A DNA stretch of 64,000 nt, from the NCBI RefSeq assembly GCF_026309355.1, contig NZ_JAPJZK010000001.1:3678501-3742500 (forward strand). Direction: 5' to 3'. The notes under the pieces were generated by a model. That model was not told where the DNA came from and searched no databases. It saw only the letters and a program-made list of their open reading frames with translations. Below are positions 25,809 to 54,934 of the stretch, one piece after another. Source of the stretch: Spartinivicinus marinus. Its GTDB lineage: Bacteria > Pseudomonadota > Gammaproteobacteria > Pseudomonadales > Zooshikellaceae. Both the position numbers and the translations under genes were made by a program. The number at the start of each line of letters is the position of its first letter. Position 1 is the stretch's first letter.

Positions 25809-25885
<77 letters not shown>

Positions 25886-33952: not shown

Positions 33953-34251
33953 AAAAATACTGATATGAGAATTCCCATAACGGTTAATTAATTAGGTACT
34001 ATCAAGTTGGTTATTGCTTACTTAAAAACACTAATAAGCAAGCACATGTTTAATGCTTATTGCTTTGCATCAAATATACGACATTTGATTTCAATAATTT
34101 GAAATATCAGAAAACTAAAGTTGTAAACTAATTCAAGATACATTATAAATGTGTTGCGACAAATATCTAACTAATTAGACTTAAATTTGTTGGTATATAT
34201 TTAAACAACACTAAAGTACCCAGTAATAAAATGAATATAGGATGTTCAATT

Positions 34252-34722
34252 ATGATCTTAAAAAAAATTCTTCCTATCGCTTTGGTAACAACATTATCTA
34301 CAGCTGTCTCAGCTGACTCTTGGAGTGAAGATTTTACTAAAGACTTTAAGCCTGAAGTTGCTACATATCTAGCTAAATGGTATGAAGATAATTACAGCAA
34401 TTATTCTTATATTTATAGAAAATTCTGTTTTTGTCCTGAATCAGGAAAATCATTTACGGTTGACGTAAGGGATAACGAAGTCAAAAAAGTTACCTACACT
34501 GATACTAATGAAAAAGTACCAGAATCCTATATGAACACATTTGATACCATTGATGGACTTTTTGCTGATTTAATTAAAGCTAATAAAAGTGCTCACAAAA
34601 TAAATGTTCAATTTAATGAACGCTTTGGTAACCCAAGTAGTGTTTACATTGACCATGATCCTCGGATTGCAGATGAAGAAACTGCCTATTCTATAGATCA
34701 AATTTATGTAATGTTGCCCTAA
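34252..34722 (+). CDS. Exported DUF6174-like cargo protein
   Basis: 156 residues from the ATG at 34252 (MILKKILPIALVTTLSTAVSA signal peptide); AGGA lies upstream, and an ATG at 34231 is an alternative. Mature features: YSYIYRKFCFCPESGKSF, VRDNEVKKVTYTD, TIDGLFADLIKANK and a final NPSSVYIDHDPRIADEETAY, which match DUF6174. It reads against the tail operon between genes W and V, with its own AT-rich promoter region. It is probably a moron expressed in the lysogen. Function unknown. Confidence 0.65.
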   Translation: MILKKILPIALVTTLSTAVSADSWSEDFTKDFKPEVATYLAKWYEDNYSNYSYIYRKFCFCPESGKSFTVDVRDNEVKKVTYTDTNEKVPESYMNTFDTIDGLFADLIKANKSAHKINVQFNERFGNPSSVYIDHDPRIADEETAYSIDQIYVMLP

Positions 34723-38570: not shown

Positions 38571-38939
38571 TTAAAAAATACTAGGAGCTTGTAATAAAAT
38601 GCCACGCTCTCTTAAGGGCTGAAAAACGGTGTCTGTTGTATGGCCAGGCCCTAATTGTAAAATCGCTGGATTTAAACAAATCGAGGTATACACACCAGCA
38701 GTGGTTTCTTTGCTGGTGGTATCCATCGCATAAGGCAATACACAGTCGGGCACTTCACTACCATCGTTAGCATTTTTATCCGATAAACGATATTGGCCTT
38801 TATTATCACGCCCTAATACCGAATAGGGTTTTAACTTTTGACCTTTAGCAATGGTCACCGTAACCGTAGTAATCGGCTGATTGCCCGTAATAATAATTGG
38901 TTGGGCGGCAATCGAATGATGTTGGCTATCCGCAATCAT
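38571..38939 (-). CDS. Head decoration protein (lambda D-like)
   Basis: 122 residues. VTVTIAKGQKLKPYSVLGRDNKGQYRLSD, then PDCVLPYAMDTTSKETTAGVYTS, typical of the gpD trimer that caps lambda capsids. It follows the protease/scaffold gene directly. Confidence 0.88.
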   Translation of the reverse strand: MIADSQHHSIAAQPIIITGNQPITTVTVTIAKGQKLKPYSVLGRDNKGQYRLSDKNANDGSEVPDCVLPYAMDTTSKETTAGVYTSICLNPAILQLGPGHTTDTVFQPLRERGILLQAPSIF

Positions 38940-39307
38940 TAGGCTTTGTCTCCATACACATGATTAAAATCCGCGAGCATTTGGCCAATGGCTGTTTTAG
39001 GCGCTTCGGCTTCAGGGGCCGGTTCGCTATCGATATTGGGGTGTGTATCGCTATTCATTACTTGGGTAAAATCAGTTTTAGCTTCGGTAGCCTGTGGAAT
39101 CGTTTTTAATAATGTAATGGCTTCATCCGCTGACATCACTGTGTTTAACGCCAGTTGTTGTGCTGTCGCTTCGCGGCCTTTAGCTTCATCGCAGTCTAAA
39201 ATGGTTTGAATTCGCTGGCGTTCTTCAGCTACAGCGGCTTGTTTTTCTGCGTCTAAATTAATGGGGTTTTGCTCCGCTTTAGGGGCGGATTCATGGGTTG
39301 CTGTCAT
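38939..39307 (-). CDS. Nested scaffold protein (lambda Nu3-like) from an internal start
   Basis: An in-frame ATG at 39305-39307 is preceded by AAGGA with a 5-base spacer, a strong ribosome site inside the protease gene. It gives 122 residues: MTATHESAPKAEQNP, coiled coil AVAEERQRIQTIL, acidic linker, and a basic-aromatic end IGQMLADFNHVYGDKA. In lambda, Nu3 is made in the same way and scaffolds the procapsid. Confidence 0.75.
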   Translation of the reverse strand: MTATHESAPKAEQNPINLDAEKQAAVAEERQRIQTILDCDEAKGREATAQQLALNTVMSADEAITLLKTIPQATEAKTDFTQVMNSDTHPNIDSEPAPEAEAPKTAIGQMLADFNHVYGDKA

Positions 39308-40201
39308 AACAGTCCTTAGGGTGGTGGATGAATTAAGGGTTTGAATAAAAGTGGGTAATACTTGATGGGCGGGTAAAACCCGATCAGCTAAGCCAACATC
39401 GATAGCCGCTTGACCGGTAAATACTTTGGCTTCAGTATTTTTAATGGTTTCTGTATTTAATTGACGATGACGAGAAACCGTTTCGATAAATAAACCATAA
39501 ATGTCGTTTATTTCAGATTGCAAGTCGGCTTTGACATTATTAGGTAACGGCTCAAACGGATTACCATCGGCTTTATGGGCACCGGCATGAATTAAGGTGA
39601 CATTAATTCCCTCTTTAGCCAGCAGTTCACTTTGATCGGTATGGGCGAGTAATACCCCAATACTGCCAACCATCCCGGTACGGGGCAGAATAATTTCATT
39701 AGCCGCGGAGGCTAAGGCATACGCCGCACTACAGGCTTGTTCATCCACTAATGCCCAAATCGGTTTATGCTGTCTCGCTTGATAAATCAAATCGGCTAAA
39801 TCAAAGCAGCCCGAAACACTGCCGCCGGGGCTATTAATATCCAATAAAATACCTTGAATATCCGAGTCATTAATGGCTTCTGCTAATTTTCTCTGAATTC
39901 CATCATAGCCTGTCATCCCGCTGTAAGGGTCCAGGTGGCCGTACTTGTGAGTTAAGGTACCGACTACCGGAATAATGGCTATCCCTTGATTGACTTGATA
40001 AAGCTTGTGTTCCCGAGGCTCAAATTCAGTGGCAGCTTGCTTTAATTCAATGGCTGATAGCTGATTTTCACCACTAACCAATGACTCAATCACTAAGCGG
40101 TCAGATAGAGCGCCGAGCATGACTTGGGCGTAGTTGGGTTCAATCAATAGGGGTTGATTCACGACCATAGAAAGCAGTCGTGGGAATTGCTTGCTCATCA
40201 T
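38939..40201 (-). CDS. Capsid protease, S49 family (lambda C-like), with scaffold domain
   Basis: 420 residues (lambda C about 439). Signature IAIIPVVGTLTHKYG, NSPGGSVSGCFDLADLIYQ, catalytic Ser in QACSAAYALASAANEI and Lys in HAGAHKADGNPF. The C-terminal 122 residues form the lambda Nu3-like scaffold, also made alone from an internal start (see nested entry). Confidence 0.9.
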   Translation of the reverse strand: MMSKQFPRLLSMVVNQPLLIEPNYAQVMLGALSDRLVIESLVSGENQLSAIELKQAATEFEPREHKLYQVNQGIAIIPVVGTLTHKYGHLDPYSGMTGYDGIQRKLAEAINDSDIQGILLDINSPGGSVSGCFDLADLIYQARQHKPIWALVDEQACSAAYALASAANEIILPRTGMVGSIGVLLAHTDQSELLAKEGINVTLIHAGAHKADGNPFEPLPNNVKADLQSEINDIYGLFIETVSRHRQLNTETIKNTEAKVFTGQAAIDVGLADRVLPAHQVLPTFIQTLNSSTTLRTVMTATHESAPKAEQNPINLDAEKQAAVAEERQRIQTILDCDEAKGREATAQQLALNTVMSADEAITLLKTIPQATEAKTDFTQVMNSDTHPNIDSEPAPEAEAPKTAIGQMLADFNHVYGDKA

Positions 40202-40274: not shown

Positions 40275-40320
40275 TTACATGTAACACAATCTTGACATAA
40301 AATGACATTACATGTAACAT
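40275..40320 (+). promoter_or_regulatory. Promoter with two identical palindromic operators
   Basis: Perfect -35 TTGACA at 40292-40297, 17-bp spacer, -10 TAACAT at 40315-40320. Identical palindromes TTACATGTAA lie at 40275-40284 (just upstream of -35) and 40308-40317 (overlapping -10), 33 bp apart centre to centre, or about three helix turns. This is a textbook repression layout. It drives the small zinc-ribbon cassette. Confidence 0.75.
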
Positions 40321-40394
40321 TACCTATAACACGAGACAACAATATGTCTCACCACTTCAACGGACTGAAGCGAATAAATAGAGAGGTAAGTTGT

Positions 40395-40499
40395 ATGTTC
40401 CAATTTCTTGATAATGGTTATGTGAAAGTAGGTTTGTTTTGTTTAGCGGTTTTTGTCGCAGTTAAATTTATTTCAAACGCCAGCCTCTTGGGACTGTAA
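40395..40499 (+). CDS. Small single-pass membrane peptide
   Basis: 34 residues, MFQFLDNGYVKVGLFCLAVFVAVKF then ISNASLLGL. The GAGAGG ribosome site 8 bases before the ATG at 40395 decides the start; the frame runs back to 40302, but that part lies in the promoter. Residues about 11-28 form one transmembrane helix. First gene of the plus-strand cassette. Function unknown. Confidence 0.5.
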   Translation: MFQFLDNGYVKVGLFCLAVFVAVKFISNASLLGL

Positions 40500-40541
40500 A
40501 TACAACAGTAAATTAGTTAATGGATTTTAGAGGTATTACAT

Positions 40542-40709
40542 ATGACTCATAATAAACTATCAAAAGAGTTTGAGCCTGAAGTAATTTGTCCGCAATGTTC
40601 GACTCGTGTACTTAAAATTGATTTTGATATTATTGGTTGTCCTTTATGTAAAAACAAAAGTGAATTTAACAAAGAGGTACCTAATTGGGAACTTGAACCT
40701 ATGGAGTAA
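40542..40709 (+). CDS. Zinc-ribbon miniprotein A
   Basis: 55 residues: VICPQCSTRVLKIDFDIIGCPLC gives two CxxC knuckles 14 residues apart, with an acidic tail. AGAGGT precedes the ATG by 7 bases. It resembles the next gene in spacing and in the FDxxGCxxC segment, so the two are likely paralogues. Zinc binding is predicted from the cysteines; the target is unknown. Confidence 0.6.
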   Translation: MTHNKLSKEFEPEVICPQCSTRVLKIDFDIIGCPLCKNKSEFNKEVPNWELEPME

Positions 40710-40747
40710 AATAATACAATTCAACTTTAATATAGTGTAGTAGCCGT

Positions 40748-40918
40748 ATGAGTACAGAGAATATGAAGCACCAATATGACATCATTGCCGCCACTTGTTC
40801 AGAATGCCAGAGTATTATTAATCGTCATTACTTTGATTTTTTCGGCTGCCATGTATGTGAAGAATTTGAAACAACCAACAAAGAAATTGCTAACAAAAGT
40901 GATGTTGTAGACAATTAA
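40748..40918 (+). CDS. Zinc-ribbon miniprotein B
   Basis: 56 residues: ATCSECQSIINRHYFDFFGC then HVCEEF, two CxxC knuckles at the same spacing as the preceding gene. The FDFFGCHVC block aligns with FDIIGCPLC of protein A. The ribosome site is weak. A terminator follows directly. Confidence 0.55.
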   Translation: MSTENMKHQYDIIAATCSECQSIINRHYFDFFGCHVCEEFETTNKEIANKSDVVDN

Positions 40919-40920
40919 TG

Positions 40921-40946
40921 AGCCCATTTTTCTATTGGGCTTTTTT
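40921..40946 (+). terminator. Rho-independent terminator of the zinc-ribbon cassette
   Basis: Arms AGCCCA / TGGGCT with a 9-base loop and six T. It starts 2 bases after the last cassette gene and overlaps the 3' end of the convergent portal gene (stop near 40932). Confidence 0.75.
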
Positions 40947-42449
40947 GTTACGATTATTTTGGAAACTTCCCATTTCTTGTTTTTCCCGCAACCGCTGCTC
41001 AAACAACTCCTGATAATCCTCGCCCAACATCATCGCCGCTTTTTCATAGGTTAGTAAGCCTAGATTCATCAGTAACTCTATCCGCTTTACTTCTTTTAAG
41101 CCATCAATATGGGTTTGGCCTTGCGCGATCCACAGGCAACGACACCAAGCGGATTTGGCTTGATAAAAATTGGGGGAGCCATTCGGTAATTGAATGATGC
41201 CTTTATTGACCATTTCTTCTAGCCAAAGCGCATAGAGTTGACTGCAAAACCGGGCGGGAATAATCTCTCTTATCCCTAAAAAGTATTTCCAACTCTCCAA
41301 CATACTGGCTCGGGCACTGGAATAATTGGTTTTACTGTAATCTTTACTTAACTGCTCAAAGCTTAAGTTCATGCTGGCCGCTAAATGCCGTAGCAAGGTA
41401 TCCTCAAACTGACTAAAGGCGGCATTAGTGCTAGCCGTTTTCAGCTCTAATTTTTCATTGGGTAATAAATGAGGGATTTTCACCCCATTAAATCGAATAT
41501 TTTTAGCCTTTTGATGATAACCGGCGACTTGAGCTAAGTAATTGGTAAAGGCATTATTGTGGCCATCATCTACACCACCCAGTGCGGCTAACACCGTCTG
41601 ACTATCCATTTCGGATTCAATAACAGCCGCATACATGGCATTAACAATGGCATTTTGTAAGGTGGCATCCTGAAATTGTTCCAGCATTTTTAAGCTTTTT
41701 AAACTGGACACAAACACATTCACCCCACGGGTTTGGTCGGCTTGTTCTGGCTCAAAAATATGTAGAATTTGCAATCGGCCCCAGCGCTTACGCTTAGCGA
41801 TTTTTTTCCACTGGTAAGCGTGATGGGTCAAACCGGCTTCTGATTGATGGGCAGAACGAATATGGTAAGCCAAGGCTTGGCCCCGTGGGCCTAATTCCAC
41901 CCCAGCCCGAAGCCGGTAACTGTCGGGTAATTCATAGGGATTACACAGCCGTTCACTATCAATAAGTTTAATTGCGGTTTGGGCGTTATTTCTGGCCAAT
42001 TTCCGCCATTCCACACTGGCCAATACTTCGCCTTGATGAGCATGGTGACGAACGCTTTCTCTGGCGAGCATGGTTAAGGTGCGCTTTTCTTCCGCATCAA
42101 TCCAAGCGTCAGGGTCTTCCGCCCAATCGGTAAAGCGCGCCTCTACGTCTTTAGCCCATTCGTTAGCCACCTTATGATCAATGCCCAACACTTTATAGTT
42201 AGGCTTAGCCGATAACCGAAACTGGTGACCAACGATATTATCCACATAGGTTTGTTCAGCTCCGGCGGCATAACCATGGCTGCGCTTAATATCCCGAGCA
42301 CGGCTGTTACGCAGCTGCCGTTCGGGCAAGTGCTCCATGTCCACTGACAAGGTAGGCGGCTGCCAGTCTTGCAACGTTTCCTGCAACTGTCGACTATAGG
42401 TGTGCGCTTGAATGGGGTTTCCCCATTGATCAATGAGTTTTGGCATCAA
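40932..42449 (-). CDS. Portal protein (lambda B-like)
   Basis: 505 residues (lambda B 533). Signatures: RHLVRNNPYA-like NSRARDIKRSHGYAAGAEQTYVDNIVG, HLFEPEQADQTRG-type ILHIFEPEQADQTRGVN, FASLKSL-like SSLKSLKMLEQFQDATLQNAIVNAMYAAVIES, and ARASMLESWKYFLGIRE. Forms the dodecameric DNA channel. The small W gene overlaps its start by 4 bases. Confidence 0.9.
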   Translation of the reverse strand: MMPKLIDQWGNPIQAHTYSRQLQETLQDWQPPTLSVDMEHLPERQLRNSRARDIKRSHGYAAGAEQTYVDNIVGHQFRLSAKPNYKVLGIDHKVANEWAKDVEARFTDWAEDPDAWIDAEEKRTLTMLARESVRHHAHQGEVLASVEWRKLARNNAQTAIKLIDSERLCNPYELPDSYRLRAGVELGPRGQALAYHIRSAHQSEAGLTHHAYQWKKIAKRKRWGRLQILHIFEPEQADQTRGVNVFVSSLKSLKMLEQFQDATLQNAIVNAMYAAVIESEMDSQTVLAALGGVDDGHNNAFTNYLAQVAGYHQKAKNIRFNGVKIPHLLPNEKLELKTASTNAAFSQFEDTLLRHLAASMNLSFEQLSKDYSKTNYSSARASMLESWKYFLGIREIIPARFCSQLYALWLEEMVNKGIIQLPNGSPNFYQAKSAWCRCLWIAQGQTHIDGLKEVKRIELLMNLGLLTYEKAAMMLGEDYQELFEQRLREKQEMGSFQNNRNKKAQ

Positions 42450-48425: not shown

Positions 48426-48812
48426 TTACTGAATTATCCTCATCCACCTTTTAATATTGAAATTAGGACAGTTCTTACCCGAATCTAAATCACAATGCCC
48501 AACCACTTCAGCATCAGGGTATTTAATGTGCCAGTCGATAATCACTTTATCTAAACTATCAAGCTGAGCATCAGTAAACTGATCTCTACCTACCAAACAA
48601 ACACCCAAGCTATGACTATTGTGACCTTTAACATGCGCCCCGACCCAATATTCAGGCCGACCATTTTCGATAGTACCATCTCGTTTAATTACTTTATGAT
48701 ACCCAATACCTGACCAGCCTCTTTCAAGGTGCCATAGGTGAATATCTTTGGCGGAGATATCTAGGTTGTTAGGAGAGTCTGAGCAGTGGACGACGAGTTT
48801 GGTGATGTTCAT
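48426..48812 (-). CDS. N-acetylmuramoyl-L-alanine amidase endolysin
   Basis: 128 residues of the Amidase_2 / T7 lysozyme fold. Zinc ligands are visible: His in KLVVHCSDSPNN, His in VVGHCDLDSGKNCPNF and its Cys. A typical DIHLWHLERGWSGIGYHKVI follows the first. No signal peptide, so a holin is needed for export. It cleaves the peptide from the glycan. Confidence 0.9.
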   Translation of the reverse strand: MNITKLVVHCSDSPNNLDISAKDIHLWHLERGWSGIGYHKVIKRDGTIENGRPEYWVGAHVKGHNSHSLGVCLVGRDQFTDAQLDSLDKVIIDWHIKYPDAEVVGHCDLDSGKNCPNFNIKRWMRIIQ

Positions 48813-48904
48813 TGTTCGGAAAATACTTAATGGTTAATGGCTATGTTTTACAAAGAGGTAATCGTGTAGCCTGTTATAACATTTTGACTGGAATAAGGTT
48901 TATT

Positions 48905-49405
48905 ATGAAGAAACAGGCAATATCAATAGCTTTGATGACTCTGTTGTTCGGTTGTACTGCTTCTGCGCCAAGCTTAAATGCATTTATCAATGACTTTTAT
49001 GATTCAAACTTGGTTACTACGTTTGGAATCCTTGAAGATGACGCCGTCAAAGCTTATGTGAGTGATGATCTAAGGGTACTATTTTCAAAGGCTAGAGAAG
49101 TACAAGATACTTTTGCTACAAAACATCCAGATTTAAAACCAAGACTGGTTGATACGCTGCTTTTTACAAGTGTACCGCATGATCAACCTACAAAACGCAC
49201 TATTCAAGATATTAAGGAAGTAAATGGCATCTATAAAGTAACTGTTAGTTTTGATGCAATAGAAGGCAATGATAGGTGTGCTGATAAACTTTTTATAAGT
49301 AGCAATGATGACTTATTTGAAATTGCAGACATTGAACTTGGTTGCTATGAATCTAAGAAATTATCAACACTACTTTCTGAGTCTATTAAGGATCACCAGA
49401 AGTAA
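48905..49405 (+). CDS. Predicted lipoprotein (cargo)
   Basis: 166 residues from the ATG at 48905, chosen because AAGG precedes it by 6 bases and a lipobox follows (IALMTLLFGC). Mature part starts TASAPSLNAFINDFYD and contains YVSDDLRVLFSKAREVQD. Transcribed against the lysis operon, so it can be expressed in the lysogen; probably a moron. It resembles DUF3828-type proteins only loosely. Confidence 0.5.
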   Translation: MKKQAISIALMTLLFGCTASAPSLNAFINDFYDSNLVTTFGILEDDAVKAYVSDDLRVLFSKAREVQDTFATKHPDLKPRLVDTLLFTSVPHDQPTKRTIQDIKEVNGIYKVTVSFDAIEGNDRCADKLFISSNDDLFEIADIELGCYESKKLSTLLSESIKDHQK

Positions 49406-54246: not shown

Positions 54247-54271
54247 TACTATGAGTTACAAGATACACAAA

Positions 54272-54320
54272 GATTACTAAGTAAGTCAATAGTTACGATA
54301 AAGTTTTCTTTTGATTACTT
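54272..54320. promoter_or_regulatory. Repressor half-sites upstream of the repressor gene
   Basis: GATTACTA at 54272-54279 (inside the short dyad TTACT-A-AGTAA) and GATTACTT at 54313-54320. The second equals the half-site of the full operator at 54878-54896. Likely control sites for the repressor and for the leftward operon. Confidence 0.4.
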
Positions 54321-54355
54321 TCTACTTCTTTTGAAAGAGATGGTACGCTTACTAT

Positions 54356-54793: not shown

Positions 54794-54877
54794 GTAACCC
54801 TCCTTAACTCATTCCCCTCCTATCCTTATAGATATTTTTAATCAGCTCTCCCTTGATGGTAAATTTTTTATACTTGA

Positions 54878-54896
54878 AAGTAATCAATGATTACTT
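54878..54896. promoter_or_regulatory. Phage operator before the early operon
   Basis: AAGTAATC-AAT-GATTACTT, perfect 8-bp arms with 3-bp centre. It lies 39 bases upstream of the 54935 gene and overlaps a TTGAAA -35-like box at 54874-54879. Repression of the rightward early operon is the likely role. Confidence 0.65.
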
Positions 54897-54934
54897 AAGA
54901 ATACTAAGTACACAGCATTAGCGAGAGTTACAAA

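What the first reader, a model, noticed from the sequence alone, without database searches (positions are those of the whole stretch)
40275..40946. Operator-bracketed zinc-ribbon cassette reading against the capsid operon
Between protease and portal genes there is a complete plus-strand unit: TTGACA/TAACAT promoter, two identical TTACATGTAA palindromes 33 bp apart, a 34-residue membrane peptide, two paralogous miniproteins with CxxC-x14-CxxC knuckles, and a terminator. Lambda has nothing there. The tight operator layout suggests a repressed or lysogen-specific cargo, perhaps exclusion or anti-defence. It is the best candidate in this window for a previously undescribed small system.
Basis: partly seen in the sequence, partly recalled or inferred. 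Interest (0 to 1): 0.75.

Follow-up and report, generated by a model that had tools for sequence, protein, structure and literature searches.

The report
Prophage cassette wired to host stress
A prophage in a bacterium carries a small self-contained gene cassette (one tiny membrane peptide and two tiny probable zinc-binding proteins) whose control region carries the same DNA signal as the host's own membrane-stress genes, and a sister prophage carries an antiviral toxin system in the same slot, so the cassette is probably stress-triggered cargo that protects the cell or excludes other phages.

Summary
The unit is real: a promoter, two exact TTACATGTAA palindromes, a 34-aa membrane peptide (M), two related CxxC-x13-CxxC miniproteins (ZnA, ZnB) and a terminator, reading against the capsid operon between the S49 protease and portal genes. 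It is moron-like: two prophage loci of a congeneric genome carry it in the same order and place (one a decayed remnant), ZnA is under strong purifying selection (dN/dS 0.03-0.08), a sister-genus phage has an empty junction, and a near-identical prophage of the same genome holds DarTG there.

M plus a zinc-knuckle gene is also a chromosomal unit in the three genus genomes held; no convincing relative was found elsewhere. And the palindrome is not lysogeny-specific: it is conserved upstream of fxsA, a DUF2170-pspA operon, a second pspA and a ceramidase-like gene, and the phage shares 29 identical promoter bases with the chromosomal M-Zn unit.

Best reading: cargo wired into a host membrane-stress regulon, probably released from repression by stress. 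The regulator and the proteins' function (membrane protection, phage exclusion or other) are inferred, not shown. New variant of a known kind, encoding a new genus-restricted microprotein family.

The parts
40275..40284 (.). Upstream operator TTACATGTAA, 5' of the -35
   Evidence: exact in the two G002 phage cassettes
40292..40297 (+). -35 element TTGACA
   Evidence: present in the 3 phage and 3 chromosomal promoters compared
40292..40320 (+). 29-base promoter core identical to the promoter of the chromosomal M-zinc-knuckle unit of the same genome
40308..40317 (.). Downstream operator TTACATGTAA overlapping the -10
   Evidence: TTACAGGTAA in the two G002 phage copies
40315..40320 (+). -10 element TAACAT
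40333..40350 (+). Inverted repeat GAGACA-N6-TGTCTC in the leader (GAGACATAAAATGTCTC in the G002 copies; GACAT-N3-ATGTC downstream of the chromosomal promoters): hairpin or second operator
40395..40499 (+). M, 34-aa probable single-pass membrane peptide (residues 12-26, mean Kyte-Doolittle 2.6)
40542..40709 (+). ZnA, 55-aa probable zinc-knuckle miniprotein (CPQC-x13-CPLC)
40748..40918 (+). ZnB, probable zinc-knuckle miniprotein (CSEC-x13-CHVC); start perhaps 40763 (51 aa)
40920..40947 (+). Rho-independent terminator-like hairpin (GAGCCCA-N9-TGGGCTT, T run)
   Evidence: a counterpart in both G002 copies
38939..40201 (-). Flanking capsid gene: S49 peptidase
40932..42449 (-). Flanking capsid gene: portal (named by eye and by position after the gpA-type terminase)

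Best explanation
The unit is a moron: cargo inserted at the portal-protease junction of the prophage, with its own promoter and terminator, reading against the late operon. It is related to, and shares its promoter core with, a chromosomal two-gene unit of the host genus (membrane peptide M plus a CxxC-x13-CxxC miniprotein), with a second, ZnA-type gene added. Its operators are those found at a set of host membrane-stress genes (two pspA genes, DUF2170, fxsA, a ceramidase-like gene). Shown by sequence: anatomy, conservation, insertion at a variable slot, shared operator and shared 29-base promoter. Inferred: a host repressor covers the -10 and holds the genes down until the envelope is disturbed, for example by phage entry or depolarisation; M then sits in the inner membrane, and ZnA/ZnB act with it to stabilise the membrane or to block or abort infection by another phage. 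The regulator and the biochemical activity are unidentified.
For: Same order (operator, TTGACA, operator on the -10, M, ZnA, ZnB, terminator) in two further prophage loci of G002, one of which keeps only about 49 protease and 29 portal residues by match but has the whole cassette. ZnA dN/dS 0.03-0.08 with dS 0.88-1.21 (Fisher p 4e-12 and 1e-8 for the two comparisons with the window). Junction states: cassette; DarTG in the 99%-portal prophage of the same genome; 4-bp gene overlap in sister-genus G004; 26-201 bp from portal stop to first matched protease base in 6 of 6 relatives that hold both genes, against a 730-bp gap here. M-Zn unit beside the ceramidase-like gene in 3 of 3 genus genomes. 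Exact TTACATGTAA upstream of fxsA, pspA1, pspA2 and the ceramidase-like gene in 3 of 3 genomes and of M-Zn in 2 of 3, the third with TCACATGTAA; Pfam names for the G000 proteins. Genome counts 14, 12, 10 against reversed-pattern controls 5, 6, 3. With a matrix built from host sites alone the two cassette sites rank first and second in the window (17.55; next 10.78), though those host sites were gathered with a pattern taken from the cassette palindrome.
Against: No transcript, binding or phenotype data. Of the exact palindromes, 5 of 14 (G000), 6 of 12 (G001) and 4 of 10 (G002) lie outside these loci, several inside genes. One ends about 20 bp before the repressor gene of a different prophage in G002, so a phage regulator might also read it. 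The 8 chromosomal c-, d- and e-type paralogues checked have no such box within 400 bp upstream, so the family as a whole is not tied to the regulon. The cassette was found in 2 of 3 genus genomes, not in G001. ZnB evolves fast (dN 0.31-0.57), with saturated dS in 2 of 3 comparisons. The ZnA model is of moderate confidence (pLDDT 72, pTM 0.43) and no PDB match reaches E 0.001; zinc binding is inferred from the cysteines. The M gene of the chromosomal unit in G002 is frameshifted.
Confidence: 0.6

Rival explanations
1. Membrane-homeostasis cargo: the cassette backs up the host response to envelope damage, with no specific effect on phages.
For: Regulon partners are PspA x2, FxsA and membrane or lipid proteins; chromosomal M-Zn unit at one place in 3 of 3 genus genomes; the cassette is kept in a decayed prophage.
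Against: Does not explain why it occupies a slot that elsewhere holds a defence system, nor the added ZnA gene.
Confidence: 0.4
2. Phage-exclusion or abortive-infection module: M is a membrane effector, ZnA/ZnB are sensors or partners, and the stress operators make it infection-inducible.
For: The same junction holds DarTG in a sister prophage; opposite-strand moron next to a portal gene, like the P2 portal-side hotspot described in PMC9519451 (passages); membrane peptide; ZnB diverges fast. Phage infection can raise host membrane-damage responses, as the title of PMC8125068 states for phiX174 (listing only).
Against: No PADLOC match for M or ZnB and only weak ones for ZnA (best E 0.0048). A chromosomal M-Zn copy sits at one place in 3 of 3 genus genomes, which fits housekeeping better than defence. 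The defence slot rests on one DarTG case.
Confidence: 0.3
3. ZnA and ZnB are small nucleic-acid-binding regulators in the manner of phage Com or Ogr (recalled) that act on phage or host transcripts.
For: Small proteins with paired CxxC knuckles; weak similarity of some family members to generic zinc-ribbon models (Zn_ribbon_8, best E 1.4e-5).
Against: No Com or Ogr model is listed for ZnA or ZnB, nor among the 25 of 86 Pfam families shown for the 14 members; M has no place in this scheme.
Confidence: 0.15
4. The palindromes are operators of the phage's own repressor and the unit is an ordinary lysogeny-expressed gene set.
For: TTACATGTAA lies about 20 bp before the repressor gene of another prophage in G002.
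Against: None in this phage's immunity region, where GTAATC-N3-GATTAC is the likelier operator (by eye); conserved at 4 host loci in 3 of 3 genomes and at a fifth in 2 of 3.
Confidence: 0.08
5. Anti-restriction cargo: ZnA works like the small Lar-type restriction-alleviation proteins.
For: Weak PHROGs match of ZnA to a Lar-like restriction alleviation family (E 0.016, residues 14-45).
Against: Not significant, one of 13 weak PHROGs matches for ZnA; none for ZnB; does not explain M or the stress operators.
Confidence: 0.07

Closest known systems
Morons / prophage accessory loci (PMC7067206, passages seen)
   Same: Extra genes among structural genes, antisense to the late genes, with their own promoter and terminator, absent from relatives
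   Different: Operators shared with host membrane-stress genes; product family without significant match in the libraries searched
P2-like prophage defence hotspots beside the portal gene (PMC9519451, passages seen)
   Same: Variable cargo next to a portal gene, here DarTG in one prophage and this cassette in others
   Different: Slot lies between portal and S49 protease; no defence function shown for this cassette
Psp and Bac PspA-type envelope-stress operons (PMC10948618, passages seen; that BacA is the DUF2170 protein is recalled)
   Same: Shares the operator sequence with host pspA/DUF2170 promoters; encodes a small membrane peptide
   Different: The cassette has no PspA-like gene; P. aeruginosa bac is proposed to be sigma-54 dependent, whereas these promoters look sigma-70-like
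Mu Com / P2 Ogr-type small phage zinc proteins (recalled)
   Same: Small proteins with paired cysteine knuckles
   Different: No family match; spacing x13; linked to a membrane peptide

Membership tests
Moron | Inserted between genes that abut in relatives | tested here: met
   730-bp gap here; portal and protease overlap by 4 bp in L144; 26-201 bp from portal stop to first protease match in 6 of 6 relatives with both genes
Moron | Own promoter and terminator | tested here: met
   By sequence only
Moron | Expressed from the prophage while late genes are silent | not testable with these tools
   No RNA data
Host TTACATGTAA membrane-stress regulon | Operator conserved upstream of orthologous host membrane-stress genes | tested here: met
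   fxsA, pspA1, pspA2 and ceramidase-like gene in 3 of 3 genomes; M-Zn exact in 2 of 3
Host TTACATGTAA membrane-stress regulon | A regulator binds the site and responds to stress | not testable with these tools
   Regulator not identified
Known anti-phage defence systems (PADLOC) | Profile match | tested here: not met
   none for M or ZnB; weak only for ZnA (best E 0.0048)
Mu Com zinc-ribbon family | Family profile match | tested here: not met
   No Com model listed for ZnA or ZnB in Pfam, PHROGs or NCBIfam
Lar-like restriction alleviation proteins | Family profile match | tested here: inconclusive
   phrog_6422, E 0.016 for ZnA; no such match for ZnB
Zinc-ribbon fold | Two CxxC knuckles and a confident fold match | tested here: inconclusive
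   Four cysteines invariant in 14 of 14 aligned; model pLDDT 72; best PDB match E 1.0, a RanBP-type zinc finger

The most novel reading that the evidence does not exclude
A previously undescribed infection-inducible exclusion module: a prophage has captured a host membrane-peptide and zinc-knuckle stress unit with its promoter, so that the membrane disturbance caused by an incoming phage relieves the host repressor and fires a membrane-acting microprotein trio; the portal-protease junction is a defence slot in which it alternates with DarTG.
Probability: 0.25. Interest if true: 0.82.

Novelty: new variant of a known kind. Interest (0 to 1): 0.62.

Why it matters
Prophage accessory genes are often simply expressed during lysogeny. 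One that carries the operators and 29 identical promoter bases of a host PspA/FxsA-type membrane-stress set would let a prophage sense envelope attack through its host. How many other morons use host stress operators was not surveyed (one listing). The case gives a directly testable set (three microproteins, two operators, a shared promoter), a genus-restricted microprotein family, the outline of a membrane-stress regulon whose regulator is unknown, and a candidate phage-defence slot between portal and protease.

Tried and rejected
Phage-repressor operator: put last among the regulatory readings, because the palindrome is absent from this phage's immunity region and conserved at host genes. 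Com/Ogr membership: no model listed. The G075 hit (E 1.7e-4) lies antisense across the end of one plus-strand ORF and the start of the next and was rejected as a likely chance frame. Weak hits (E 0.018-0.09) in 5 order-level genomes in each were not followed. Phage records: two matches at E 4 and 8 for ZnA, none for ZnB. IMG/VR scans with the single proteins: 11 and 9 pattern matches, none confirmed. Plasmids: none for ZnA (ZnB and M not tried). Genome contigs with A2: 77 pattern matches, none confirmed. In one search at most 17 candidates per genome were scored. PDB by profile: best E 0.0037, a cytochrome, judged chance. Fold search: nothing at E<=0.001. Literature: the letters TTACATGTAA gave 18 papers, judged by title and abstract start only, none on a bacterial regulator of this kind; fxsA/pspA/yjfJ/regulon gave 5 papers, none on such a regulon by title and abstract start; PA3731 with PA4387 gave none. 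Searches were read as listings. Passages only were read of PMC10948618, PMC9519451 and PMC7067206; no whole paper was read. No tool names the organism; the sister genus is probably Zooshikella, since a Z. ganghwensis contig and G004 both give a 68-69% portal segment; Spartinivicinus for the window's own genus is a guess.

Full report
Observation. Between the S49 protease gene (38939-40201, minus) and the portal gene (40932-42449, minus) of a prophage lies a plus-strand unit. A sigma-70-like promoter, TTGACA-17-TAACAT, lies at 40292-40320 (6 such sites found in the 1.4 kb scanned, 4.1 expected, so by itself it proves little). TTACATGTAA occurs at 40275 and 40308 and nowhere else in the window (expected 0.15); the second copy overlaps the -10. 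Three genes follow: M (34 aa, hydrophobic stretch at residues 12-26), ZnA (55 aa) and ZnB (56 aa, or 51 aa from 40763, which comparison with the G002 copies favours). A hairpin with a T run closes the unit. ZnA and ZnB resemble each other. The cysteine spacing is CxxC-x13-CxxC, not x14.

Is it a real gene set? ZnA has relatives at 91% and 87% identity at two loci of a congeneric genome (G002), each followed by a ZnB relative and preceded by M and the same promoter layout. Between the three ZnA copies there are 18, 16 and 16 synonymous against 5, 8 and 10 non-synonymous changes in 55 codons (dN/dS 0.03-0.08; Fisher p 4e-12 and 1e-8 for the two comparisons with the window). The locus at G002:1228k is a prophage remnant: about 49 residues of protease and 29 of portal remain by match, but the cassette is complete. 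ZnB is much more divergent (dN 0.31-0.57). G001, the third genus genome, has no cassette in the searches.

Where does it sit? In G002:1296k the flanking portal is 98% identical and the cassette is in the same place. In the window's own genome a second prophage (C1:619041, portal 99%) has no M, ZnA or ZnB but a different insert of about 1.8 kb at this junction, on the minus strand; its two genes match DarG (E 1.8e-131) and DarT (E 1.8e-61) in PADLOC. In the sister-genus genome G004 portal and protease overlap by four bases. Of eight portal relatives from IMG/VR and GTDB contigs, six hold both genes; in all six the distance from the portal stop to the first matched protease base is 26-201 bp (two junctions also read directly). 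The other two are one truncated Zooshikella contig seen in both collections. The slot thus looks empty by ancestry and has received at least two kinds of cargo.

Where does it come from? M and a zinc-knuckle gene also form a chromosomal two-gene unit beside a ceramidase-like gene in all three genus genomes held; in G002 its M gene is frameshifted. The chromosomes also hold single relatives: a 65-69% relative of ZnA (next to a gene that looks by eye like an SNF2-type helicase in G000) and two more types. By pairwise score ZnB is nearest to the M-linked chromosomal type and ZnA to the 69% type. The cassette thus looks like the M-linked unit with a ZnA-type gene added; the direction of transfer is inferred and no tree was built. 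Outside the genus nothing convincing was found: 95 relatives (3 genus genomes with strong hits; 5 others with E above 0.01 in each), 369 genomes of the class with a profile (own genome plus one hit judged spurious), GTDB contigs, IMG/VR, phages, plasmids for ZnA.

What controls it? TTACATGTAA occurs 14, 12 and 10 times in G000, G001 and G002 against 5, 6 and 3 for the reversed pattern, but 3 and 6 against 10 and 9 in the two sister-genus genomes. In all three genus genomes an exact copy lies upstream of fxsA (next to a groES-like gene, by eye), of a DUF2170-pspA operon (four boxes counting near-matches), of a second pspA (two boxes, one of them TTACAGGTAA in G002) and of the ceramidase-like gene; the chromosomal M-Zn promoter has it in two genomes and TCACATGTAA in the third. 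Pfam names were obtained for the G000 proteins; the orthologues were matched by eye. In G000 a further site lies before a PEMT/ICMT-type membrane methyltransferase gene, with no exact counterpart among the listed sites of the other two. Counting these, 9 of 14, 6 of 12 and 6 of 10 exact sites are at such loci or at phage cassettes; the rest are inside genes or at unrelated places, among them a phage remnant and a site ending about 20 bp before another prophage's repressor gene in G002. The phage promoter and the chromosomal M-Zn promoter of the same genome share 29 identical bases, 40292-40320. With a matrix built from 27 host sites the two cassette operators rank first and second in the window (17.55; next 10.78); the host sites had been gathered with a pattern taken from the cassette, so this is consistency, not independent proof. 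The window's immunity region holds no copy. The 8 chromosomal paralogues of the other types checked have no box within 400 bp.

Mechanism. A site overlapping the -10 in the six M-type promoters compared, with a second upstream of the -35 in the three phage copies (starts 31-33 bp apart, about three turns), suggests repression with cooperative binding, relieved by envelope stress. This is inference from position; the regulator is unknown. PspA and FxsA partners and a membrane peptide point to membrane function. The DarTG alternative in the same slot, and the published portal-side hotspot of P2-like prophages (PMC9519451, passages), make a role in phage exclusion plausible. Homeostasis is rated slightly above exclusion because an M-Zn unit sits at one chromosomal place in all three genus genomes. 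A weak match of ZnA to Lar-like restriction alleviation proteins (E 0.016) leaves anti-restriction open.

Novelty. The architecture is that of a moron: an opposite-strand accessory locus with its own promoter, of the kind PMC7067206 describes (passages). ZnA, ZnB and M have no match above the curated cut-offs of Pfam or NCBIfam, and only weak ones in PHROGs (best E 0.001) and PADLOC (best E 0.0048); some chromosomal family members match generic zinc-ribbon models weakly (best E 1.4e-5). The AlphaFold2 model of ZnA is of moderate confidence and matches nothing significantly. New, as far as searched, are the family, the host-stress wiring of the cassette, and the slot.

Noticed in passing
L143 5217-7023 (G000:C1:617216-619022): Second prophage of the same genome carries a DarTG system at the portal-protease junction
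   Followed up: partly
G000/G001/G002 upstream of fxsA, DUF2170-pspA, pspA2, ceramidase-like gene (L094, L113, L110, L120 and orthologues): Genus-level set of membrane-stress genes with the operator TTACATGTAA, up to four boxes per promoter; regulator unknown
   Followed up: partly
34231-34722 +: DUF6174 gene with a signal-peptide-like start by eye, read against the tail operon; a similar ORF lies in a G002 prophage remnant (L118): another moron candidate
   Followed up: no
48812-49405 +: Lipoprotein-like ORF (by eye) read against the late operon; no Pfam match; possible further moron
   Followed up: no
25809-25885 -: tRNA-Met (CAT) gene inside the tail region of the prophage
   Followed up: no
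54870-54900 and 54270-54345: GTAATC-N3-GATTAC palindrome and GATTACT-like repeats around the repressor gene: likely the phage's own operators, different from TTACATGTAA (by eye)
   Followed up: no
40333-40350: Leader inverted repeat GAGACA/TGTCTC, similar to GACAT-N3-ATGTC near the chromosomal M-Zn promoters; hairpin or second operator
   Followed up: partly
L067 (G002:C1:2913098-2913048): Chromosomal M gene frameshifted in G002, the genome with two phage-borne cassette copies
   Followed up: partly
L108 2001-2032 (G002:C1:4496209): TTACATGTAA about 20 bp upstream of a repressor gene of a different prophage
   Followed up: partly
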